Shown here in pieces: positions 34,094-55,100 of a stretch of DNA of 64,000 bases. Position 1 is the first letter of the stretch; each line of letters opens with the position of its first letter. The stretch comes from Rhizophagus irregularis (lineage: Eukaryota; Glomeromycota; Glomeromycetes; Glomerales; Glomeraceae). Location: positions 1,757,501 to 1,821,500 of the forward strand of contig NC_089438.1 in the NCBI RefSeq assembly GCF_026210795.1. The letters are read 5' to 3'. The notes beneath the pieces were generated by a model that did no database searches, was not told where the DNA came from, and saw only the letters and a list, made by a program, of their open reading frames with translations. A program made the translations under genes and the position numbers.

Positions 34094-34782
34094 AGTTCCG
34101 AATTTCCCGAATTTCCCGGAAATCTAAAATACTACCGTATATGGGAGAGTAAGCTGAAAAATTGATTTAAAAAAAACTTGATACCCGCAAGATTAGATCG
34201 TAAAAGACGGTCGGCAAACGACATTAATGGGATTTACAGGAAATAAATCCGGATAAAAATTTCGGCAATTAAACAAATTGCATGACGCATCTGATCTTGG
34301 TTGCGAATACATTAGGTTTGTTTCATACTATATGCACTATATGCCGTGCTCCAAAGAATATATTTCGTAAATAAGAAAAAATAAGAATGATTATAAATAA
34401 AATTTTATATGAAATCTTCTAAATAAATTTTCCTTTTTTTTCTTGCTGGACATGAAAAATATAGATAGGTCTAAATAATTCCGAACTTTCTTTCTGTTTT
34501 TATATTTTCCAACTAAAGCATCCACTTTTACAAAAAAGTAAAATAAAAATAATAAAAGCCTCCTTTGCCACAATTTTTTATATAAAACAAAAAAAAAAAC
34601 ATTATTTATTGAAAGGTGGGGTGTTTCTATCAAATTTTTTTTTATTAAACTGTTCTTGTTTTCATGTTCTTTATAAAGAACATTTCTTTTTTTACAATCT
34701 ATTTTTTTTAAAAAAATATTTCTTAATAGTAAACCAAATTGTGAATATACAGATTGACCAAATTTAAGAAAACTCACGTAAA
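34094..34782. other. Upstream region of the copper ATPase
   Basis: Bases 34095-34330 have scattered CCCGAATTTCCCGG-like and CCGGAAAT words, possibly remains of the neighbouring MITE family. Bases 34380-34780 are A+T-rich and likely include the ATPase promoter. A 128-codon minus-strand frame here (34391-34777) is Lys/Phe/Leu low-complexity and is not accepted. Confidence 0.4.
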
Positions 34783-37700
34783 ATGGATAAAACTGACGTT
34801 CATTCTCGAGCAGTTGACATAATAGAAGATCTTGGTGATAATGCTATTACTGATAGCAAGGATTCAACAGCTCAAGCTGAAGTGATTCCAATTAATGGTA
34901 TGACATGTCAGTCTTGTGTAAAGTCGATAACTAATGCAGTTTCTTCATTATCTGGAATTTTGAATATTACTGTGAGTTTAGAAAATAAAGAAGCATCAAT
35001 TTCTTTTGATTCAAATAAAGTATCAAAATCAACAATCATTGAAACAATTGAAAATTGTGGATTTGATGTTCCTTTAACATCAGATATATCAATGGTAGAT
35101 AAAGTAATTCCAATTAATGGTATGACATGTCAGTCTTGTGTTAGGTCGATAACTAATGCTGTTTCTTCATTATCTGGAATTTTGAATATTACTGTGAGTT
35201 TAGAAAATAATGAAGCATCAGTATCTTTTGATTCAAATAAAATAACATTATCAACAATTATTGAAACAATTGAAGATTGTGGATTTGATGTTCCTTTAAC
35301 ATCAGATATATCAATGGTAGATAAAGTAATTCCAATTAATGGTATGACATGCCAGTCTTGCGTAAGGTCGATAACTAACGCTGTTTCTCTATTACCTGGA
35401 ATTGTAAATATTACTGTGAGTTTAGAAAATAATGAAGCATCAGTTTCTTTTGATCCAAATAAAATAACATTATCAACAATTATTGAAACAATTGAAAATT
35501 GTGGATTTGATGTTCCTTTAGCATCAGATATAGCAAATATTAATTCAACAGAATTTGCTTCATTCACAAATATTACTTTGAAACAATCACAGGAAGAAGA
35601 ATCATATCCTCTTAAAGTTATTAAGACACATAGTTTTGATCAAGATAATATTCAAGTTTGTCATATACAAGTTCTTGGGATGACTTGTGCGTCTTGCGTG
35701 AATAGCATAGAAAAAAATTGTTGTGAAGCTGCAGGAATAATTTCAATTAAAGTGTCTTTACTTGCTGAAAGAGCAATAGTGGAATATGATCCTGATATTT
35801 TAGATGAGAGTTCTGTAGCTGAATTGATTGATAGCTTAGGATTTAAAGCTACTCCAATTAAGCCAAAGCGTGAAGGTTCAGTCGATCTTCAAATTTTTGG
35901 AATGCGAACCTCCGATCATGCCCAATTAATTGAACGAGAATTACTTAAAATTTCTGGAATAATAAACGTTTCAGTTAATTTTTCCACGGCAATAGCAACG
36001 GTTCAATTCGATAAGGAATCCTTAGGAGTTCGGGATATCGTAGACCAAATTGAAAAACTTGATTTTAATGCTCTTATCCATGATAATAGTCAAAAAGCTC
36101 AGTTAGAATCTTTAGCTCGTACAAGAGAAATTACAGAATGGCGTTCAGCATTCTATCGATCGCTTATTTTCGCTATTCCTGTTTTCTTTATTTCTATGGT
36201 CTTCCCAGGATTTGAATGGGGAAGGAAATTAGTTCATATTGAATTACTTCGTGGGATATTTAGTGGTGATTTAGTCGCTCTTTTATTAACAATTCCTGTT
36301 CAATTTGGTGTTGGAAAACGATTTTATGTTTCATCATACAAAGCTCTCAAACACAAAACTGCTACTATGGACGTTTTAATAGTTATTGGAACTACGTCCG
36401 CGTTTACTTTTTCATGCTTTTCCATGATCTTTGCATTAATTGTAGATGGAAATGAACCATCGGTATTTTTCGATACATCGACCATGTTAATTACTTTTGT
36501 TACGTTTGGAAGATATCTTGAGAATTTAGCAAAAGGAAAAACCTCAGTTGCATTATCGAAACTCATGTCACTCACGCCTGCTTCTACTACCATATTAATT
36601 AAAGATTCCAAAACAGGTGAAATAATTGGAGAGAAAAAAATTCCTACAGAATTAGTACAAGTTGGCGATGTAGTAAAAATTTTTCCTGGGGATAAAATTC
36701 CGGCAGATGGAATTGTTATATCAGGTCAATCAGCTGTAGATGAATCAATGGTAACTGGAGAAGTCAATCCTGTAAACAAACGACAAAGTGATTCGGTAAT
36801 TGGTGGCACTGTTAATGGATTGGGAACTTTTGATATGGAGGTCACACGTGCTGGAAGCGATACAGCTTTATCTCAAATTGTCAAACTTGTTGAAGAAGCT
36901 CAAATTTCCAAAGCTCCGATTCAAGAATTTGCTGATACCGTTGCCGGTTATTTTGTACCCGTGGTCATTGGGTTAGGCCTACTTACATTCGTAGGGTGGA
37001 TGATTCTTGCACAAATTTTAAATCCTCCTCCGGAAATTTTTGAACATAATGGAAGTTATTTCATGGTTTGTCTTAAATTATGTATTTCTGTTATTGTGGT
37101 TGCATGTCCTTGTGCATTAGGTCTTAGTACTCCTACGGCTGTTATGGTCGGAACTGGAGTTGGAGCACAAAATGGAATATTAATCAAAGGTGGTGGTCCG
37201 CTTGAAACAGGACATAAAATTACAAAAATCGTTTTTGATAAGACTGGTACACTTACAAAGGGTCAATTAGACGTTGCTCATTATGAGATTATAACGAACA
37301 ATTTAGAATTGACAAAGGAAACATTTTTTGCAATTGTTGGAGCAGCTGAATCTTCTAGCGAACATCCTCTTGGAAGATCTATCGTAAATTATGGAAAGAA
37401 ATTGTTAGATATTGAAACATATGATGCTGATGTTTCAGATTTTGAAGCTGTTGCTGGATTAGGTATAAAATGTAAAGTGATTTTAAATACATCATATTCT
37501 GCTGTTACACCTCTATCGGCAACAACAAATACAACATCAAAATTATATAATGTCTTGATCGGTAATGAGAAATTTCTCTCACTTCGAAATCAAATATTTA
37601 TTCCAAGCGAAGCAATGAATATCAAAGAATCACAAGAACGTCTTGGAAGGACTGCAGTTTTAGTAGCCATTAACAATTCATTTGCTGGTTGTATATTTTT

Positions 37701-38418
37701 ATCTGACATGGTTAAACCTGAAGCTAAAATAGCAGTTGGGGCTTTACGTTGTATGGGAATTTCAGTTGCAATGGTTACAGGTGATCAATTGCTTACTGCC
37801 GAAGCAATTGCAGCGCAATGTGATATTACTGAAATTCATGCTGGTGTATCACCAAAAGGTAAAACACAAATTGTTCAAACGCTTCAGTATGAAGGTAAAG
37901 GAAATGTAGTGGCAATGGTTGGGGATGGTATAAATGATTCACCAGCATTAGCAGCAGCAGATTTAGGTATTGCGCTTTGTTCGGGTACAGATATTGCAAT
38001 GGAAGCAGCAGATATTGTATTAATGAGAGGGGATATAACAGATGTTGTAGCGGCTATTGACTTATCAAAAACAATATTTAAACGTATTAGGTTAAATTTT
38101 GTATGGGCAAGTTTATATAATGTATTGGGCATTCCTCTAGCTATGGGGTTATTTATCCCGTGGGGATTTCATTTACATCCAATGATGGCTGGATTTGCAA
38201 TGGCTTTTTCGAGCGTGAGCGTTGTTTGTTCTAGTTTATTATTAAGATGGTGGAATAAACCTACTTGGGTTGATAATGGTAAAGGTGGTGTAGAAAGAAT
38301 TGTAGATAATGATGGTATAATCAATTATTTAATAACTTTATTAAAACATGGTCCTAATAGTAGTAATTATATTGGTAATAGTAGATATAGTAGATTAGCA
38401 GCCGAAGATAACTTATAA
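34783..38418 (+). CDS. CCC2: Copper-transporting P1B-type ATPase (Ccc2/ATP7-like), intronless
   Basis: An uninterrupted frame encodes 1,211 residues. It pumps Cu(I) out of the cytosol, normally into the late Golgi for loading of secreted cuproenzymes. The N-terminus has three almost identical HMA domains with GMTCQSC (Cys42/45, 116/119, 190/193), a fourth diverged one with GMTCASC (Cys302/305), and a fifth degenerate one (GMRTSDH at 373-379) that has lost both cysteines. The catalytic core is complete: TGE (658-660), the transport site CPC (775-777) in [17 protein letters not shown], phosphorylated Asp819 in DKTGT, His861-Pro862 in SEHPLG, and GDGINDS (1047-1053). Eight membrane spans are expected. 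Yeast Ccc2 has two HMA domains and human ATP7A/B six, so five is plausible. It is the only long gene here with no intron. Confidence 0.95.
34882..35547 (+). repeat. Three 222-base tandem HMA-coding repeats
   Basis: Units start at 34882, 35104 and 35326, giving an exact 222-base (74-codon) period. Each encodes one HMA domain plus the linker. The second and first units share [10 protein letters not shown] and DSNK, while the second and third share NEASVSF and [11 protein letters not shown], so unit 2 is a mosaic of its neighbours. This implies recent unequal exchange or conversion. Confidence 0.9.
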
Positions 38419-40192: not shown

Positions 40193-43100
40193 ATGGATGT
40201 CGACACAGAAACATCTCAAGGCGAAACTATAGCAGGTGGTCCAACTACTACTTCGCTTGTTCCACCTTGCGAACCAAATCAATTACAAGATTATTTTGAT
40301 AAATTATTACCTTTGGTCCTGGGGGCTGAATCTTCTGATTTAGCAAATTCACTGTGGTCTGTGAGTGATACCACAGATAAATTAAAGCGTTTTATAAATG
40401 ACCCTCAGGTTAACGTTATATTTTTCACAAAGAGAAGAGACGACAAGAAAGAAGAAGGTAAGTTTACATATTCACTCCGCAGTATACTTGTATTACATGC
40501 GCTATGCAATGCGACAAAGGATATACATTGAAAGTTGCACAATTTGTGCGCAGGAAAGATTTATCGTGAACCTTTATATAGAGAATATTTCATTTTATCG
40601 AATCGATCCAACTTGAAATGAATCAAATTATTGGTTGATAGATTTGAATATATGCCATCACAACTCACATCAATGAAAATTTTACGCTTTAAATTCATTT
40701 CATTAACACAGATGAACAAGCAACTTTCACATATTCATACATATGTACACAAGAAATCACTTACAATTCAAATAACGTTGCTTCCGTCGCTTTCATAAAA
40801 CACGTACCTACGTTGGATGGTTCTCGCGCAATACAAACACAGATTCAACTTATAAATTTACCCGGTCCTGCATCAAGCGATTCCGGTTCGACTGGTATAA
40901 GCCCATATGAAGCGTTACATTCTTACATTCACCTTGCTGTTGCTCCTTATTTCGATGCATATGCTAGAGAAAAAGGTGCCAACGAAGGTCTTGTCAGCAT
41001 TGGAGGTAAAAAACACGATGACTCTAAAATGGGTATGTATAAGCTAATATTAATTAATCATTTTTTAATGGAAATCATTGTAAATTTATTAATATATATT
41101 ATCGTATTTATTAATATTTTTACTATTTTTTTTAAAAAGGTATTCCGATGGCCAAAAAGAAAATTACCGAATTAGAATTATCACTTCTTCATTTACAACA
41201 AAATGTTGAAATACCCGAGATATCACTTAATATACATCCTGTAGTTCAAAAAACTGTGGAAGAGGTAAGTAATCTTTTCCGTAATTTTGAATAATCCCGT
41301 ATTTTTTTTTCTGAATCGTGTTTTGAATTTTTTTTCTAACCAATTTTTCTTCAACATATTAAATAGTGTAGGAAAAAAGGAAAGCGTGTAACCGTTGACA
41401 TGATTGAAAATCAAGCACTTCTCACAGATTCAACATTTTTGAATAAACTCCAAGGAGATGTAAACGGTTGGATTAAAGAAATTAAAAAGGTTACCAAGTT
41501 GTCACGTGATCCGGCAAGTGGCACGGCCATTCAAGAAATTAATTTCTGGCTAAGCATGGAAAAAGCTTTGGAAGGAATTGACGAACAGTTAAAAGGAGAC
41601 CACATCGGTTTGAATATATATATTTTTTTTTTAAAAAAAAAGAGACAACTTCTTTATTTGTGATATTAAATATTTATCATCATTATTATTTTTAGAATTA
41701 ACATTAAGCATTTTGCGACATGCTAAACGTTATCACACAACGGTATCATTTATCGCCGATACTGGTTTGAAGGAATCAAAAGAAAAAGGTACATTGATTT
41801 ATTTAATCACACCAGTCTCTCATTAGAGTGTTATACTTACAAATCACGTTCTTCAATTATATTAGTTAATAAATACAACCAACTTATGAAGGATTTTCCT
41901 CTTAATGAACTTCTTTCTGCACCTGATGTGAATAAGATAAAGGAATCATTAAACATTATTTTTAATCATTTGAAGAAATTAAGATTATCGTAAGTTTTAT
42001 ATATATTTATTTAATAATTGTAAAAATTTTTCATCTTTTACTTATAATTTCATAATTTTTAGCACATATCCAATCAAAAAAGCTCTCGCACTTGTTGAAG
42101 CTATATCACGTGATTTAAATGATCAGCTACTCAGAGTTTTGGGTAACCGAAGATTAATGTATATGGAATATGAAGATTTCGAAAAAATTATGTCTGGTGC
42201 TGAAGATGTGTTTAAGACTTGGGACGAAAACATTAAAGAATTTACAAATATAGCGCGTGATGTTACACGTAAACGTTCAGACAAGTTTATCCCAATTAAA
42301 ATTAGCCCTGCACATGACAAATTACAAGAACGTGTTGCTTTTGTAAGGAATTTCAGAAAACAACATGAACAACTTCATCAAACAATTGTTAAAGTTATGT
42401 CACAACCTAAAACTACCACGAAGATAGTGGTTGAAGGAGAAGACAAAGTGGTACGACAAGAAGAAGAATCCGCAAATACGAATGATATTAATTCAATGGA
42501 AGAAGTTAAATTGGCTTACGAGAGCGTGAAGGATATTGATGTATTGGATGTATCAATTGAAGGTACCGAAATTTGGATGCAAGCGGAGAATGCTTATAAC
42601 GAACGCGTTTCACGTGTCGAAAATCAGATCATTTCGAGTTTACGTGATCGTCTTGGTACTTGCAAGAACGCCAATGAAATGTTTCGCGTATTCTCTAAAT
42701 TTAATGCTTTGTTTGTTAGACCTAAGGTATCGTATATTTTTTTTTTCTCTTTGATCAAATCATCATTACTTTAAATAATAAATTTTTTATTTTATATTCA
42801 AATTTATTTATATAGATTCGTGGTGCCATTCAAGAATATCAAACTCAACTTATTGACTCCGTCAAAGAAGATATTAAGAAACTTCAAGACAAATTCACAC
42901 AACAATATCGTAAATCTGAAGCATATCACATGGCACAACTTCGTGACTTACCAGCTATTTCCGGCGCTATGATTTGGGCTCGACAAATAGAACGTCAATT
43001 ACAAGCATACATGAAGCGTGTTGAAGATGTACTCGGAAAAGGTTGGGAAATGTATGCGGAAGGCCAAAAATTGCAAACTGATAGCAATAACTTTAAGAAG

Positions 43101-46100
43101 AAATTAGATACCCGACCGGTAATTTTGAGATAATAAGTTATTTAAAAATAGGCGTTGAAATGCTAATCATCATCTTTTTTTTTTAAATTATAGATTTTTG
43201 AAACCTGGCAAAAGGATATTCAGAATAGACGCGATTTAAATGTTAGCGGTCGACTCTTTGAAATTACTAAGAACCGTGCACAAGGGAATGTACTGCAATT
43301 GGGTGTTAATTTTGACCCACAAATTATTACTTTATTCAAAGAAGTGAGAAATTTACTGTGGTTAAATCATCAAGTACCACATAATATTAGCAGTCTTGCA
43401 AAGACTGCAAAACGTGTTTATCCCTTTGCTGTCAGTCTTATGGAAACAGTACGAACATACGCACAAACTCTACAAAAAGTTCAAAAACATCCTGAAATTA
43501 TCATGTTAGTAGCTAGTTATCGACATGAAGTACAGGTCATGATCACAAAAGGTATAAATTATGAATGGAAATATTTTGTCGAAACATATGATCGCCATTA
43601 CAGAACAAATTTACTTAATGGAGGAGCCTTAGATGAAAATCAACATGTCACTTTTGTAAGAGAGTTTGCAAACCAAGTATCAATCTTCCAAGATAAAGTT
43701 GATGCATTGATAGATAGTTATGACAGTATCTCTCGACATATTGATGATTTGAAAACTTGCGCTTTTAAGGGTCGAAAATTCCAGGCAAACTTAAAGAAAA
43801 TTCAAGATATAATTAATAGGCTTATTCTTGAGTCATACTCAAATCTCAACCCATGGGTTGCTCAACTTGATAAACGTGTTGAAAATGTTCTTGTTAACCG
43901 GTTAGAAGATGCAGTTGATGCGTGGACAATAGAATTTATGGAATCAGGCGACGAATCTGCTAATTTTGCGGAATCCATATATAGTGAAGCAGTTTCAATA
44001 AGTGGTAAAGCTGTAGGAAAAAATAAACGTAGAACCACAAGAAATGATTCAATTGATGGCGAAAGACCAACTATATCAAAAGCCGAGAAACCTACACTTG
44101 CTGTTTTAACTCATGAAATTAAGATTCGTAATCAAGTAATTTATCTAGACCCTCCTATTGAAGATGCTAGAGCAAAATGGTATAATCAATTCCATGAATG
44201 GCTTGCTATTGTGTGCAGTCTTCCAAGACTCCAAAGTTCCAGTTACGATATTGATTTACAAGTCAGAGGAACTTTTTCTCGTGAGACAACTTATTCTAAT
44301 TTATTGACACAGATTCCGAGTAATTCACTTGAGAAGGCTTATGAAGTAATCGAAGCCAAATTGAAAGAAGTATTCGAATATATAAACGTTTGGTTTCAAT
44401 TTCAATCGTTATGGGATCTTGAAGCAAATAATGTATTCGCTGAACTTGGTGATAATCTTTTAAAATGGCAACAAATTCTTACTGAAATTAAAAAAGCTAG
44501 AAATACTTTTGATAACTCTGATACATCACGAACCTTTGGTCCCATAGTAATTGATTATCAACATGCACAAAGTAAGGTTAATGCTAAATATGATTCGTGG
44601 CAACGAGAGGTTCTCAATAAGTTCGGTGCTAAGATTGCAGATTCTATGAGAGAATTTAACACGAACGTTTCTCATGCTCGTAATGATCTTGAAAATAAAT
44701 CCATGGAAAGTGATAATACTAGTGAAGCTCTTGAACTGTTTATCTTTGTTCAAGATCTTAATCGTAAAGTTGCTAAGTGGGAACAAGATGTTGAAATTTT
44801 CAAAAATGGACAGAAAACTTTGGAGAGGCAACGATACCAATTCCCAAGTGATTGGATATATATTGATCAAATTGAAAATGAATGGAGTGCTTTTAATCAA
44901 ATATTGAAAAGAAAGGACAATGCAATTATGGAACAAGTTGATAGCTTAAAAATGAAGATCATTACTGAAGATAAAGTCATTGAAGGTAAAGTTAAAGAAA
45001 TAGTTACTGAATGGTTTGAGAAAAAACCAATTCAGGGAGATATTAAACCCGATGTTGCAATAAATACACTTAATCAATTTGAGAGTCGCGTCTCTCGTAT
45101 CAAAGAAAATTATGAAAGTGTTTGTCATGCTAAAGAAGCTCTTAATATGGAGTCGTCTTCTGAGGATCGATTAGAGCCTGTTTATGAAGAACTTAAAGAT
45201 CTTAAGTCTGTATGGAGTTCTCTTGGTAAAGTTTGGAGTTCTATTAATGAACTAAAGGATCAACCATGGGCTTCCGTTGTACCTCGTAAAATCAGACAAC
45301 AATTGGATAATCTTATCAATTCTACAAAAGAAATGCCCAGTCGTATGCGTACATATGCAGCTTTTGAATATGTTCAAGAAACAATGAAACAATACATCAA
45401 AGTTAATCCTATTCTCTCCGAACTTAAATCCGATGCTTTGAAAGATCGTCATTGGAAACAATTATTTAAAGTATTACGTTTTGAAGGTCGTGTAAGTTCA
45501 TCTGATATGACTGTTGGTCAAATTTGGGACATGGACCTAAAGAAAAATGAAACAGTTATTAGAGAAGTTGTAGCTCAAGCAGCTGGTGAAATGGCTCTCG
45601 AAGAATTTTTAAAACAAGTTAAAGAAACGTGGACAACTTATGCTCTTGAACTTGTAAATTATCAAAATAAGTGTCGTCTTATCAAAGGTTGGGATGATCT
45701 TTTTACAAAATGCAGCGAAAATCTTAATTCATTAACAGCCATGAAAATGTCACCATATTATAAAACCTTTGAAGAAGATGCTTCTTCATGGGAAGATAAA
45801 TTAAATCGCGTTAACCTCTTGTTTGACGTTTGGATTGATGTTCAACGTCAATGGGTATATTTGGAAGGTATTTTTAGTGGTAGTGCAGACATTAAACATT
45901 TGCTTCCTGTAGAAACTCAACGCTTCACAAATATCAACTCTGAATTCATGGGTGTCATGAAAAAAGTTTATAAATCTCCTTTCGTAATGGATGTTTTGGG
46001 TATAAGAGATGTTCAAAAATCATTAGAAAGATTGTCTGATCTCTTAAGTAAGATTCAAAAAGCTCTTGGTGAATACCTCGAAAGAGAACGTTCATCATTC

Positions 46101-49100
46101 CCTCGTTTCTACTTTGTTGGTGACGAAGATTTACTCGAAATTATTGGTAATAGTAAAGATGTTGTTAGAATCCAGAAACATTTCAAAAAGATGTTTGCTG
46201 GTATTTCTAATATCTTATTGAGCGAAGATTTGACAATCATCCAAGGAATGGCATCCCGTGAGGGTGAAGAAATTCCATTCAAACATCCGATATCAATTAA
46301 AGAAAATCCAAAAATTAATGACTGGCTTACTATGATCGAAAAAGAAATGAAAGTCTCTCTCGCTGAATGGTTAACAGAAGCTGTTGCTGAACTTAGTTCA
46401 TTTTACCTTAATGATGAATTAGTTACCAGTACCTTATTAGAATGGATTGAAAAATATGCATCACAATTAGTAGTAGTTGCGGTTCAAATTGTTTGGACAA
46501 CATCTGTAGACAAAGCTCTCTCTACAATAGAACAGGGTGATCGTAACGATCAAACTCCATTAAACAAATCCCTTCAGTTCGTAACTCGCGCATTAGACGT
46601 CTTAGCTGACACTGTACTCACAGATTTACCTTCAACTCAACGCAAAAAATGTGAACATTTAATTACTGAACTTGTACATCAACGAGATCTTATCCGTCAA
46701 CTTACTAAGAACAAAATATCTTCACCAAAGGACTTTGAATGGTTATACCAAATGAGATTTTATTTTAACGCATCTATTGATGATCCACTTGCTAGACTCA
46801 CAATTCATATGGCAAATGCTCAATTCTTATACGGATATGAATATCTTGGTGTTCCTGACCGTCTAGTACAAACCCCTCTTACCGACAGATGTTATTTAAC
46901 TCTCACTCAAGCTCTTTCTCTTCAACTCGGAGGCTCACCTTTCGGGCCGGGTAAGTCTACGAAAGTTTATTCTCTTCTCGTCAGAATTAATTATTTCGAT
47001 TTTATTCTATTCGTCCTAACAAAAAAAAATAATTTTTTTCCTTTCCGCCAATTAAATGGTGAACATTTTATTTCTTGTTTATTAGCTGGTAAGTAATTTT
47101 ACATATTTTTTCAAATACTTCCGTTATTACATTAATAACAATTCTCTTTATATGTAGGTACTGGTAAAACGGAGTCGGTTAAAGCTCTTGGTGTACAGCT
47201 TGGAAGATTTGTGCTTGTATTCTGCTGTGATGAAAATTTCGATTTCCAAGCTATGGGACGTATTTTTGTTGGTCTCTGTCAAGTTGGTGCTTGGGGATGT
47301 TTTGATGAATTTAATCGTCTTGAAGAAAGAATTTTATCTGCTGTTTCGCAACAAGTACAAACCATTCAACTTGGGTTAAAGTCAATTGTAGATAATCCAA
47401 ACGCTGAAGTAGAAATTGTTGGCAAAAGTCTTACAGTTAATGCAAATACTGGCATTTTTATTACTATGAATCCTGGTTATGCTGGACGTTCTAACTTACC
47501 AGATAATTTGAAAAAACTATTTAGAAGTATGGCTATGACAAAACCAGATCGTGAACTAATTTCACAAGTTATGCTTTACTCGCAAGGTTTCCGTACAGCC
47601 GAAACTCTTGCTTCTAAAGTAGTACCGCTTTTTAACCTATGTACTGAACAATTATCGCCACAAGCACATTATGATTTCGGTCTACGTGCTTTGAAATGTG
47701 TACTTGTTAGTGCTGGTAATTTAAAACGTGAACGTCTTCAATCTCTTAGAGATAAAAATAGTGATGAATCAGAATATGCAAATATTTCAGAACCTATTCC
47801 AGAACAAGAAATTGTTATTCAAAGTATCCGTGAAACTATTGTTCCAAAATTGGTCGCTGACGATATTCCATTGTTGTCCAGTTTATTAGCTGATGTATTC
47901 CCTGGTGTTGAATATAGACCTGTAGATCTTGATAGACTTACAAACGAAATCAAACTGGTCTGTCAAGAAAAACGTCTTCTCGATGGAGAAATGTGGATGG
48001 AGAAAGTATTACAACTTTATCAAATTCAAAACTTACATCACGGTCTTATGATGGTAGGACCATCAGGTTCTGGAAAAACTGTAGCTTGGAAGGTTCTTTT
48101 GGAAGCTCTAGAACGTGTACAGGGTGTAGAAGGTGTCTCATATGTAATTGATCCAAAAGCTATCTCAAAGGATGCTCTTTATGGTACTCTTGATCCTACT
48201 ACTCGTGAATGGGTAGATGGTTTATTTACACATATCTTGCGTAAAATTGTGGACAATGTTCGTGGTGAAAGTGGAAAAAGACATTGGATTATTTTTGATG
48301 GTGACGTAGATCCCGAATGGGTCGAAAACTTGAATAGTGTACTTGATGATAATAAGTTACTTACTTTACCTAACGGTGAACGTCTGAGTCTTCCACCAAA
48401 TGTTCGTATTATGTTTGAAGTAGAAAATTTGAAATACGCTACTTTGGCTACTGTCAGTCGTTGCGGTATGGTTTGGTTCAGTGAAGAAGTTTGTACCCTA
48501 AAAATGATTTACACCAATTACTTGGAGACTCTTAAATCTGTACCATTGGATGACAATGAAGAGGAAAATTCCTCAACTGCACGCAGAGCTGAATCTGGCG
48601 AAGAAGAATCTGTTTCACCTCATTTAAGTACACAACGTGCTGTTGCACAAATTCTTGCTAAACACATGACTGACGATGGTTTCGTAACCAAAGCCCTCGA
48701 ACATGCTGAAAAATTGGAACACATTATGGATTTCACAAAGATGCGTGTTTTAAATACCTTATTCTCGTTGATGAATAAGACAGTACATAATGTCATTGAA
48801 TATAACGTACAACATCCCGATTTTCCAATGCCAGCCGATCATTTAGAAAGTTATGTCACTAAACGTCTAGTTATTGGTGTTATTTGGAGTTTCTCTGGAG
48901 ACGCGAAACTTGATTTACGTGCTAAACTTGGAGATTTCGTACGTGGAATTACAATTGTCGATTTACCGCCTGCATCTCCCGGATCATCTGTTATTGACTA
49001 CGATGTTCAAATAAGTAATGGTGAATGGGTTGCTTGGACAACTAAAGTACCTACTATTGAAATTGAAACTCATACTGTTGCTGAAGCTGATGTAGTTATT

Positions 49101-52100
49101 CCCACTGTTGATACTGTTCGTCATGAAGAAGTTTTGTATTCCTGGTTATCAGAACACAAGCCACTTATGCTTTGTGGTCCTCCAGGCTCCGGTAAAACAA
49201 TGACACTTTTCAGTGCTCTTAGAAAATTACCTGACATGGAAGTCGTTGGTCTCAACTTTTCTAGTGCTACAACTCCTGAACTTATTTTGAAAACTTTTGA
49301 ACAATATTGTGAATATAGAAAGACACCTAATGGTATAGTTTTGTCACCTATCCTTATTGGCCGTTGGATTGTAGTATTCTGCGATGAAATCAATTTACCT
49401 GCTACTGATAAATATGGAACTCAACGTGTTATTTCATTTTTAAGACAGTTAATTGAATATGGAGGTTACTGGAGAACTACTGATAAAGCATGGGTTAAAC
49501 TTGAACGTATACAATTTGTCGGTGCCTGTAATCCACCAACAGATCCTGGTCGTGTACCACTAACTCACAGATTCCTTCGTCATTCACCTTTAGTGATGGT
49601 TGACTATCCTGGCGAAATTTCTCTTAACCAAATTTATGGTACTTTCTCACGTGCCATGTTAAAAGTTGTCCCTACACTTCGAGCTTACGCCGAACCTCTT
49701 ACAGCTGCAATGGTAGATTTCTATCTTGCATCACAAAAACATTTCACACCAGATATTCAAGCTCATTATATTTATTCTCCTCGTGAATTGACCCGATGGA
49801 TGAGAGGTATTTTTGAAGCCATAAAACCAATGGAAACATTGTCTCTAGAAGGACTTGTTCGTATCTGGGCACATGAAGCTCTTCGATTGTTCCAAGATCG
49901 TCTTGTCACTGAAGAAGAAAAGAAATGGACAGATGATACTATTGATGCAATTGCTATGAAACACTTCCCTAATTTAAATCAACAAGAAGCTTTAGGACGT
50001 CCAATATTATTCTCCAATTGGTTATCCAAATATTATATTCCCGTTGAACGTGAGGATTTACGTGATTATGTCAAAGCTCGCCTCAAAGTCTTTTATGAAG
50101 AAGAATTGGATGTTCCATTAGTACTATTTAATGATGTATTGGATCACGTACTCCGTATTGATCGTGTATTTAGACAAATGCAAGGACATTTACTTTTAAT
50201 TGGTGTAAGTGGTTCCGGTAAAACTACATTATCCAGATTTGTTGCTTGGATGAACGGTTTAAGTGTCTTCCAAATCAAGGCTCATAACAAATACACCGGT
50301 GATGACTTTGATGAAGATCTTCGCGTTGTTTTAAGACGTGCAGGTTGTAAAGGTGAAAAAATATGCTTCATTATGGACGAATCCAATGTATTAGATTCAG
50401 GTTTCTTAGAACGCATGAATACATTGCTCGCTAATGCTGAGGTTCCTGGATTGTTTGAGGGTGATGAATATAATACTTTAATGACAGCTTGTAAAGAAGG
50501 TGCTCAAAGAGAAGGGTTAATGTTAGATTCTCAAGAAGAATTATATAAATGGTTCACACAACAAGTAATGAAGAATTTGCACGTTGTGTTCACAATGAAT
50601 CCTCCTGAAGGTGGTCTTGCTTCCCGTGCAGCAACTTCTCCTGCCTTATTTAATCGTTGTGTATTAGATTGGTTCGGTGATTGGCCAGACCAAGCTTTCT
50701 TCCGAGTTGGTATGGAATTCACGCATAACTTAGATTTGGATATCCAGAATTATTCTCCACCGGTAAACTTCCCAACTGCGTATCGTGGTTTATCTCTTCC
50801 ACCTACACATCGAAATGCTATTGTAAATGCTTTTGTATACGTTCATCAATCACTTTATGATATTAACGCAAAGTTAAGCAAACGACAAGGACGTTATAAT
50901 TATGTTACCCCCCGTCATTATTTGGACTTTATCAATCATTATGTACGTTTATTTAATGAGAAACGTGAAGACTTAGAAGAACAACAGCGTCATTTGAACG
51001 TTGGTTTAGACAAATTAAAAGAAACTGTGGAAACTGTAGAAGAACTTCGTAAGAGCTTAGCTATCAAGGAGAAAGATCTTAAAGCAAAAGAAGCTGAAGC
51101 CACTGAAAAATTAAAGAAGATGGTAGAAGATGAAACACTTGCTAAAGCACAAAAAGATGAATCCGAAAAAATTGGAGCTCAGCTTGAAATTCAAACAAAA
51201 AACATTGAAGAACGTCGTAGTGTTGTATTAAGAGATTTAGAGAATGCAGAACCAGCTGTTGAAGAAGCGAGGAGAAGTGTACAAGGTATTAAGAAACAAC
51301 AACTTACCGAAGTACGTTCTATGGGTAATCCTCCTGAAGCTGTAAAACTCGCTATGACTTCCGTTTGTACCTTGCTTGGATTTACTATAGACAATTGGAA
51401 AGCTGTGCAAGGTATCATTCGTCGTGACGATTTTATTACAAGTATTGTTAATTATGATACGGACAAGAACATGACAAAAAATTTGAGAGAAAAAATGAAG
51501 AAAGAATATTTAAGCAAACCGAATTTCAATTACGAGCTTGTAAACAAAGCTAGTAAAGCTTGTGGACCCTTAGTTAAATGGGTAATTGCTCAAGTGAGTT
51601 ATTCTGAAATTTTGGATAGAGTAGGACCTTTACGTCAAGAAGTAGATAATTTAGAAAAGGAACAGGAGTCTACTAAATTGAAGGCTGTTAGTATTCAAAG
51701 TATGATTAATGATTTAGAAGAAAAAATTGGAATATATAAAGTAGAATATGAATCCTTAATTAGTCAGAAAAAAGCTATTAAAGATGGTATGGAAAGTGTC
51801 AAAACAAAAGTTGACCGTAGTATGACGCTTCTTGAGAGTTTGTCATCCGAAAAAGAAAGATGGGAAAGCGGTAGCCAGGCATTTGAAACACAAATGGGTA
51901 CTATTGTGGGAGACGTCTTACTTTCAGCCGCTTTCCTCGCTTATGGTGGTTATTTTGATCAACAATATCGTGAAATATTAGTGAACAAATGGACAGGTCA
52001 TCTTGTCAACGCAAACATTCAATTCAAACAAGAACTTTCATTAACAGAATATCTTTCAACCGCCGATGATCGTCTGTCATGGCAAGCAAATTCTCTTCCC

Positions 52101-55100
52101 GCGGACGATCTTTGTACAGAAAATGCTATCATGCTCAAACGCTTCAATAGATATCCATTAATTATTGATCCATCTGGTCAAGCTTCAGCCTTTTTGATGA
52201 ATGAATATAAGGATAGAAAAATTGGAATTACTAGTTTCTTGGATGATTCATTCATTAAAAACTTGGAAAGTGCTCTTCGTTTTGGTAATCCATTACTTAT
52301 TCAAGATGTTGAACATCTTGACCCTATTTTAAATGCTGTACTAAACAAAGAATTGCGTCGTACTGGAGGTCGTGTCTTGATCCGTTTAGGAGGACAAGAT
52401 ATTGATTTCTCTCCATCATTTACTCTATTCCTTTCAACTCGTGACCCATCTGTCAATTTCCCTCCAGACGTATGCAGTCGTGTGACATTTGTCAATTTCA
52501 CTGTAACTCGTGGTAGTTTACAAAGCCAATGTCTTAATCAAGTACTTAAGGTTGAAAGACCAGATACTGACAAGAAGAGAACAGACTTAATTAAACTTCA
52601 GGGTGAATTCAAATTAAAATTAAGACATCTTGAAAAATCTCTTTTACAAGCTTTGAATGAGTCGAAGGGTAATATTTTGGATGATGCTGTAGTTTTGAAT
52701 ACTCTAGAAACATTGAAAAAGGAAGCTGCTGAAATTACTCAGAAGGTTCAAGAAACAGAAAGTATTATGCAAGAAGTTGAGGAAGTTACAAAGCAATATA
52801 CTCCCCTTGCTCAGGCTTGTAGTTCAGTCTTCTTCGTAATGGAACAAATGAACTTATTACATCATTTCTATCAATTTTCACTTGAATATTTTTATGAAAT
52901 CTTCCAATTTATTCTCCATGACAATCCCAATCTTAAAGATATTACGGAAGCTAACTCTAGATTAGACATTCTTAAACGCGACCTTTTTAACGTTTCTTTC
53001 AAACGTGTATCACGTTCATTATTGCACGAAGATTATGTTACATATGCAATTTTATTATCTCAAATTAAGATGCGTAGCTCACCTTCAGCAATTGACGAAA
53101 CAGAATACGATTTCTTATTAAGCGGCGGTGATGTAGTTCCCGGTTCTCATGCTACTGCCAAAGAATTAGGATTACCAGCTGATCTTTTCGATTCTGATCA
53201 ATTATGTAAAATCAAAGAATTTACTACCCTCCCGTGTTTCTCCAATCTTACTAAACATATCACAAGTAATTTATCAGATTGGAAAGAATTCTTGGAAGCT
53301 GAATCTGCTGAAAACTGTATTCCCGAATTCTTGGATAGTGGATTACCTGGTAAGAAACATAAGATTATTATAATGGTGTAATGAATTCTTTGAATTTCCA
53401 ATTTTTCTAATTTTCATTACTGTTAATACTATAGCTACCGTCAAACAATTACGAAAGATATTGATTGTTAAATGTTTCCGACCAGATAGATTGATTCCTG
53501 CTGTGACCCAATTAGTTGGTGTTGCATTTGACCCAGCTTTCATTAATCAAACAGATTTGGACTTTAAAGCTTTAGTTTTGGATGAAATTCAGCCAACTAC
53601 ACCAATTTCCTTATGTTCGGTTCCTGGTTATGATGCAAGTTTCCGTGTTGATAACCTTGTTGCAGAACTTAATGTTCGTTGCACATCTGTTGCTATGGGA
53701 TCACAAGAGGGTTTTACTCTTGCCGACAACGCTATTGCTAGTTCCATCAAGAATGGTAACTGGGTGTTATTGAAGAATGTACATCTTGCACCTTCCTGGT
53801 TAGGTCAATTAGAAAAGAAATTACATAGCATGAAAGCACATAAAAACTTCAGATTATTCCTTACCATGGAAACGAATCCAAAAGTGCCAGTAAACTTATT
53901 ACGTCTATCACGTATACTTATGTTCGAACCTCCACCAGGTATTAAGGCTAACCTTACAGATTCTCTCAAAGCTATTGCTCCAAGTAGACTTCAAAAAGGA
54001 CCTACGGAACGTGTCAGATTATACTTTATGCTCGCATGGTTACATGCTATTGTACAAGAACGTCTTCGTTACTGTCCTCTTGGTTGGACCAAGATTTATG
54101 AATTTAATGAATCTGATCAAGATTTTGCTATCAACACAATTGACACTTGGTTAGACTCTGTTGCTCAAGGCAGAGCTAATGTTTCCCCTGATAAGATTCC
54201 TTGGGAAGCTATGCGTTCATTGATTACTATTTCTGGTTATGGTGGTCGTATTGATAACGAATTTGATAAACGTCTATTGGAATGTTTCGTTAATAGTTTG
54301 TTCACACCAGCTGCATATGATCTTGATTTTAAACTTGTTGAAGGCGTTGACGACTTGGCTACACCTGAAGGCAGTAAGATAGACCAATTCATGAACTGGG
54401 TTAATAAACTCCCTGAAAGGCAACCACCAATTTGGTTAGGATTGCCAAGTAATGCTGAAAAAGTATTATCCATAAGCAAAGGTATACTATTTAATTTTTA
54501 TTTTTTTCTCGTTTTATTATCTATCATTTATGAAGATTATTTAAGTTATATTATAATTCTACTTTTAGGTAATGCAATGCTTGTTAAAATCATTAAGATG
54601 AGGAGTTTAGCTGACGACGATGAAGTTGCATACACACAAGAATCAGGTTCTGAATCAACTGGAGCGTCTGCTCAACCTGCTTGGATGCGTGCTCTTTATA
54701 ATAATGTCGATACTTGGTTAAATATATTACCACAAGTAAGTTTGTGTTATTAATTTAAATATCAACAAAATTTAAATATTAATACTAATCGACATACACG
54801 TTTTTTTTTTTCTTATTTACTTATTGTAGAAACTAACTTCCATGAATCGTACCGCCGAAAGTATCAAAAATCCATTATTCAGGTTTTTCGATCGTGAAAA
54901 TCAAATAGGTCGTTCTCTTCTCAAAAAGATACGTCATGATTTAGAAGATATAAAGAAGGTTTGCGATGGCGAACTTAAACAAACCAATCATTTACGCATG
55001 TTGTTGAGTTGTTTAACAAAAGGTAATTCTTTTTAATATAGTCTCAACTTTATTCAAAGAGTATTTATTAATTCGTTATTCGGATTTAATATTTAAAGGT

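What the first reader, a model, noticed from the sequence alone, without database searches (positions are those of the whole stretch)
46951..47157. Three-base microexon completes the AAA1 Walker A loop of dynein
The only splicing that yields the invariant GPAGTGKT loop uses a CTG exon of three bases at 47086-47088, flanked by a proper AG acceptor and GTAAGT donor. Skipping it keeps the reading frame but deletes one residue from the ATP-binding loop, giving GPGTGKT. Inclusion versus skipping could therefore switch the main motor ATPase site on or off. Three-base exons are near the lower limit known for spliceosomal exons, and one placed in a catalytic P-loop is striking.
Basis: partly seen in the sequence, partly recalled or inferred. 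Interest (0 to 1): 0.85.

Follow-up and report, generated by a model that had tools for sequence, protein, structure and literature searches.

The report
Three-base exon completes dynein's ATP loop
In a fungus that is probably an arbuscular mycorrhizal species, the gene for the motor protein dynein appears to need a separate exon of only three DNA letters to spell out its main ATP-binding loop; it is probably used all the time rather than as an on/off switch, and only RNA reads can prove it.

Summary
The cytoplasmic dynein heavy chain gene is interrupted inside the AAA1 Walker A codons. I enumerated GT-AG, GC-AG and AT-AC/AG splice forms across the interval. None of 144 open one-intron forms and exactly 1 of 8109 open two-intron forms gives GPAGTGKTE: introns 46951-47085 and 47089-47157 around exon CTG 47086-47088. 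Without splice-site rules, 0 of 20950 in-frame single deletions give it. A fitting exon with a good donor arose in 3 of 20000 shuffles; with the exact GTAAGT donor, in 0. GPAGTGKT is present in 17 of 17 dynein loci that cover the loop, of 19 fetched (11 distinct sequences). The two donors rank 2nd and 3rd of 851 GT sites in the gene region for U1 pairing.

The "switch" reading is unsupported: no second dynein heavy chain was found, the donors look constitutive, and skipping would give an in-frame, probably poisoned motor. No RNA evidence was available either way.

Novelty: new member of a known kind. RNA-supported 1-nt exons are published for Fusarium P450 and plant APC11, and 3-nt exons for animals. 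I found no report of one in a P-loop or in Glomeromycotina.

The parts
43194..46950 (+). Long coding exon of cytoplasmic dynein heavy chain; ends in the AAA1 Walker A codons GGG CCG G (phase 1)
   Evidence: Open frame; DHC_N2 match; start of AAA_6 match; 5' boundary inferred from intron 43119-43193
46951..47085 (+). Intron 1, 135 nt, GTAAGT...TTATTAG; branch-like CTAAC at 47016-47020, after which AG at 47084-47085 is the first AG
   Evidence: splicing itself inferred
47086..47088 (+). Three-base microexon CTG; supplies the last two bases of Ala (GCT) and the first base of Gly (GGT) in GPAGTGKT
   Evidence: Only solution among 8109 open two-intron forms; shuffles
47089..47157 (+). Intron 2, 69 nt, GTAAGT...TATGTAG; branch-like TTAAT at 47132-47136; in-frame TAA if retained
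   Evidence: splicing itself inferred
47158..53349 (+). Next long coding exon: rest of AAA1 Walker A (GT ACT GGT AAA ACG), then P-loops [16 protein letters not shown] and GVSGSGKT of AAA2-AAA4 and beyond
   Evidence: Open frame; AAA_6 match; 3' boundary inferred from intron 53350-53434

Best explanation
It is a constitutive 3-nt U2-type spliceosomal microexon in the apparently single cytoplasmic dynein 1 heavy chain gene of a Glomeromycotina fungus, by assembly size Rhizophagus irregularis. Two short introns, each recognised across the intron (intron definition), flank CTG. They are most likely removed one after the other, because U1 pairing at CTG|GTAAGT covers the whole exon and abuts the upstream AG. 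Removing either intron first leaves a full splice site for the other. The product is the conserved Walker A loop GPAGTGKT, so AAA1 can bind and hydrolyse ATP. Shown: sequence, uniqueness, frame, motif conservation in the sequences examined, donor strength. Inferred: inclusion in mRNA, order of removal, constitutive use.
For: Unique solution among 144 one-intron and 8109 two-intron forms; 0 of 20950 unconstrained deletions. Shuffles: 3 of 20000 with a donor of at least 5/6, 0 with the exact donor. GPAGTGKT in 17 of 17 covering loci of 19 fetched (11 distinct) and in the 5 alignments printed of 84 PDB matches, which stand for about two proteins. PMC4540427 (passages) states that the AAA1 loop is identical in S. 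commune, A. nidulans, S. cerevisiae and human. Removing the Ala costs 10.2 bits against Pfam AAA_6 (315.4 versus 305.2). Donors rank 2 and 3 of 851. An undivided 207-nt intron would be more than twice the longest of nine other introns assigned in the gene (69-94 nt); in the inner parts of those nine (20 nt trimmed at each end) no similar decoy exon occurs. After CTAAC, the AG ending at 47085 is the first. No second dynein heavy chain found.
Against: No RNA evidence. Exact GTAAGT also occurs at 45492 and 50205, inside the long coding exons, so it is not proof of a donor. Intron 1 (135 nt) is longer than all nine others, and its CTAAC lies 66-67 nt from the AG, against 22-42 nt for CTAAT in four others; but the other five have no CTAAY at all, and TTAAT or TTGAT motifs in some lie 48-69 nt away, so branch points are poorly resolved. 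Conservation in other Glomeromycotina could not be tested. The Ala-less form still matches AAA_6 very strongly (E 6.3e-91), so family membership alone does not decide.
Confidence: 0.88

Rival explanations
1. Regulated microexon switch: CTG is included or skipped by condition, toggling AAA1 between active GPAGTGKT and a defective FGPGTGKT loop, so that transport along hyphae is tuned.
For: The exon is a multiple of 3 with phases 1-1, so skipping keeps the frame. Acceptor 47085 has a distant branch-like motif. Of three segments folded, 47089-47150 (intron 2 donor and branch region) folds into small hairpins with 0 of 200 shuffles as stable, z -3.29. A switch-like 20-nt microexon is reported in Trichoderma Xlr2 (PMC11121469, passages).
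Against: Both donors are exact GTAAGT and rank 2 and 3 of 851. No second dynein heavy chain was found, so an off form would probably poison the only motor (inference). The hairpins are weak (-5.4 kcal/mol).
Confidence: 0.06
2. The exon is skipped: the mRNA uses one 207-nt intron and the protein has GPGTGKT in AAA1.
For: The join is open and in frame.
Against: It breaks GxxxxGKT in the only dynein heavy chain found; GPAGTGKT in 17 of 17 covering loci; an AG|CTG|GTAAGT exactly where needed would be coincidence (0 of 20000 shuffles with the exact donor); 207 nt lies outside the 69-94 nt of nine other introns.
Confidence: 0.03
3. Nested intron (stwintron) or minor U12-type splicing rather than two U2-type introns around an exon.
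For: R. irregularis has about 205 predicted minor introns (PMC10639083, passages and section 34); stwintrons are known in fungi (PMC5639578, two passages).
Against: CTG must stay in the mRNA to make the motif, whereas a stwintron leaves no exon between its parts; both donors are GTAAGT, not the U12 donor (consensus recalled).
Confidence: 0.02

Closest known systems
1-nt exon of Fusarium CYP621A P450 genes (PMC12940212; parts 1 and 2 of 3 of the text read)
   Same: Fungal gene; ultra-short exon inside a conserved protein motif; deduced from motif completion and an over-long apparent intron; GT-AG sites
   Different: 1 nt rather than 3, so skipping shifts the frame; compared across 20 orthologs and supported by 18 SRA reads; a P450, not a motor
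1-nt exons of plant APC11 and VPS55 (PMC8831610, passages)
   Same: Conserved protein, ultra-short coding exon, missed by annotation; VPS55 has a conserved GTRAGT donor
   Different: Plants; supported by RNA-seq and RT-PCR; frame-shifting if skipped
3-nt microexons of Drosophila homothorax (PMC7392893, abstract and outline), and of Drosophila troponin T and mouse Ncam (mentioned in PMC8042270, passages)
   Same: Three-base exon, in frame whether included or not
   Different: Animals; homothorax and troponin T exons are alternatively spliced; no catalytic loop mentioned in what I read
Trichoderma virens Xlr2 20-nt microexon (PMC11121469, passages)
   Same: Filamentous fungus; microexon inside a conserved domain
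   Different: 20 nt; switch-like with glucose; transcription factor

Membership tests
Spliceosomal microexon (exon of 30 nt or less) | Bounded by AG acceptor and GT donor, very short | tested here: met
   TTATTAG|CTG|GTAAGT, 3 nt
Spliceosomal microexon (exon of 30 nt or less) | Needed for the conserved protein sequence | tested here: met
   1 of 8109 two-intron and 0 of 144 one-intron forms give GPAGTGKTE
Spliceosomal microexon (exon of 30 nt or less) | Present in spliced RNA | not testable with these tools
   No RNA-seq or cDNA held
Spliceosomal microexon (exon of 30 nt or less) | Exon boundaries conserved in relatives | not testable with these tools
   No other Glomeromycotina genome held; the 17 covering loci from MAG contigs read through the loop without an intron
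Cytoplasmic dynein 1 heavy chain | AAA1 domain with GPAGTGKT, closest to dynein 1 | tested here: met
   phmmer E 3.1e-140 to 'Dynein heavy chain, cytoplasmic' and 9.4e-140 to cytoplasmic dynein 1, against 1.4e-90 to dynein 2; Pfam AAA_6 315.4 bits. Only the AAA1 region was compared with PDB
Regulated (switch-like) microexon | Condition-dependent inclusion | not testable with these tools
   No RNA data; strong donors argue against
Stwintron | No exon bases remain between internal and external intron | tested here: not met
   CTG is required in the product

The most novel reading that the evidence does not exclude
The CTG microexon is a regulated single-residue switch in the AAA1 P-loop: skipping makes an in-frame, ATPase-dead dynein that acts as a dominant brake on transport in the fungus's shared cytoplasm.
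Probability: 0.06. Interest if true: 0.85.

Novelty: new member of a known kind. Interest (0 to 1): 0.45.

Why it matters
If spliced as predicted, it would be a 3-nt constitutive exon in a catalytic loop of an essential, apparently single-copy motor in a non-Dikarya fungus. It would show that splicing across short introns tolerates near-minimal exons there too. It also warns that gene models of this fungus may carry a false one-residue deletion in the dynein Walker A loop, which could be misread as a dead or divergent motor. Each spliced transcript would report inclusion or skipping, so the locus is a clean natural test of microexon fidelity.

Tried and rejected
Single-intron solutions with GT, GC or AT donors: 0 of 144 open forms. 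Single in-frame deletions without splice rules: 0 of 20950. Repeated (introner-like) origin of the intron pair: the 207-nt interval matched only itself, 1 candidate scored (that search skips very common words). A second dynein gene or retrocopy showing the spliced form: none with AAA_6 (2 matches, both exons of this gene, 4 candidates scored) or DHC_N2 (1 match, 1 candidate). Relatives in viral contigs: 4 pattern matches, none a relative. A hairpin that would shorten the branch-to-AG distance of intron 1: not better than shuffles (z -0.59 for 47020-47085, -0.23 for the whole intron). Stwintron and U12 readings rejected as above.

Paper searches for a prior report. Several lists were capped: 20 of 120 papers, 15 of 22, 8 of 741, 6 of 8. 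The direct pair 'Rhizophagus' and 'microexon' occurs in one held paper, on Rhizoctonia solani (listing only, not read). Only open-licence PMC papers are held, so absence here is not proof.

Introns upstream of 41608 and one near 54500 were left unresolved. Nine other introns, chosen by me from frame and from recalled similarity to dynein, served as the comparison set; at several gaps other joins were also open.

Full report
What was checked. The finding claims that a 3-base exon, CTG at 47086-47088, completes the AAA1 Walker A loop of a dynein heavy chain. The sequence shows the stated features at the stated places: exon end TTCGGGCCGG at 46950 followed by GTAAGT, TTATTAG|CTG|GTAAGT at 47085-47089, and TATGTAG|GTACTGGTAAAACG at 47157-47158. 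Both junctions are phase 1. Translating 43194-46950, CTG and 47158-53380 together gives 3327 residues without a stop, containing FGPAGTGKTE.

Uniqueness. A script listed the in-frame, stop-free splice forms using GT-AG, GC-AG or AT-AC/AG sites in the interval, with introns of at least 30 nt. Without splice-site rules, 0 of 20950 single in-frame deletions give it. The direct 46950/47158 join gives FGPGTGKTE, in which the position of the first Gly of GxxxxGK[TS] is Phe.

Is it more than chance? In 20000 dinucleotide shuffles with the interval's ends fixed, an AG|CNG|GT exon able to encode Ala-Gly appeared in 26, with a donor matching at least 5 of 6 bases of GTAAGT in 3, and with the exact donor in 0; any 3-nt exon with the exact donor appeared in 5. 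In the 64-kb window, both strands, AG-NNN-GTAAGT occurs four times and AG-CNG-GTAAGT twice, the other on the minus strand at 42956, so the string alone is not diagnostic; the place, frame and codon are. Exact GTAAGT occurs eight times there, two of them (45492, 50205) inside the long coding exons. Nine other introns that I assigned are 69-94 nt long, median 77, and their inner parts hold no AG-short-exon-GT decoy; an undivided intron here would be 207 nt. Those nine were chosen from frame and from recalled similarity to dynein.

Is the motif required? Of 19 dynein loci fetched from bacterial MAG contigs, presumably protist contaminants, 17 cover the loop and all 17 have GPAGTGKT (read with the ciliate code and a motif-like filter); they hold 11 distinct 30-residue stretches. 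L020 and L021 start downstream of the loop. The 5 PDB alignments printed, of 84 matches, all show it, and stand for about two proteins. PMC4540427 (passages) states that the AAA1 loop GPAGTGKT is identical in S. commune, A. nidulans, S. cerevisiae and human. Removing the Ala costs 10.2 bits against Pfam AAA_6, though the shortened form still matches strongly. The AAA1 region is closest to cytoplasmic dynein 1. AAA_6 and DHC_N2 searches find no second heavy chain in the genome, within the limits of that tool.

Source. The genome has 146,748,485 bases in 32 contigs. PMC10234402 (passages) gives 146,773,001 bp in 32 scaffolds for R. irregularis DAOM197198, so I infer that this is that fungus or a close strain.

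How it most likely works. Two U2-type introns of 135 and 69 nt are each defined across the intron. The 3-nt exon is too small for U1 and the 3' splice-site factors to hold both sides at once, so removal is probably sequential (inference). Excision of either intron first leaves an intact site for the other...GGCTG|GTAAGT, or TTAG|CTGGTACTGG. The strong donors probably compensate for the lack of exon (inference). In intron 1 the CTAAC at 47016-47020 is followed by no AG until 47084-47085, which favours that acceptor over 47157 for this branch point, if it is the branch point.

Results against. Intron 1 is longer than the nine others, and its CTAAC lies 66-67 nt from the AG, against 22-42 nt for CTAAT in four others; five of the nine have no CTAAY, so branch points are poorly resolved. 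Intron 1 is 45 codons long and stop-free, as are 368 of 5000 shuffles; its retention would insert 45 residues without a stop. Of three segments folded, the intron 2 segment 47089-47150 is more stable than all 200 of its shuffles (z -3.29), pairing the donor and the TTAAT region in weak hairpins of -5.4 kcal/mol in all. These are the only hints of inefficient or regulated splicing, and no RNA data were available.

The switch idea. Skipping keeps frame, so it could yield a dynein with a broken AAA1 loop. That AAA1 P-loop mutants bind microtubules but fail to move is recalled, not tested here. With no second heavy chain found and no nonsense decay to clear the product, strong constitutive sites are what selection should favour, and strong donors are what is seen. 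I give the switch 6%.

Known kinds. PMC12940212 (parts 1 and 2 of 3 read) reports a 1-nt exon in a conserved motif of Fusarium CYP621A with 18 SRA reads, by the same reasoning, and mentions an 8-nt exon in a Phanerochaete P450 motif. PMC8831610 (passages) covers 1-nt exons in plant APC11 and VPS55. PMC7392893 (abstract and outline) and PMC8042270 (passages) cover 3-nt exons in animals. PMC11121469 (passages) covers a 20-nt switch-like microexon in Trichoderma. The present case is a new member of a known kind, notable for its place in a P-loop of an essential motor and for its lineage. My paper searches listed no report of it; several lists were capped and only open-licence papers are held.

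Noticed in passing
window 34768-38418 (+): 1216-aa open frame that looks like a copper-type P-ATPase with several near-identical N-terminal GMTCQSC repeats, suggesting internal duplication (identity recalled, not searched).
   Followed up: no
window 46951-47085: Intron 1 is a multiple of three and stop-free, so retention would insert 45 residues into the P-loop; an intron-like stretch before about 54570 in the same gene is also open in frame.
   Followed up: partly
window 47089-47150: Intron 2 donor and branch-like TTAAT each lie in a small predicted hairpin; z -3.29, 0 of 200 shuffles as stable.
   Followed up: partly
L003-L021: Records titled as bacterial MAGs (Verrucomicrobiaceae, rumen Bacilli, Elusimicrobia and others) carry dynein heavy chain sequence, presumably contaminating protist contigs.
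   Followed up: partly
window 40458 and 41265: Two further GTAAGT sites in the 5' part of the dynein gene rank 4 and 1 of 851 for U1 pairing and may be donors of 5' introns that I did not resolve.
   Followed up: no
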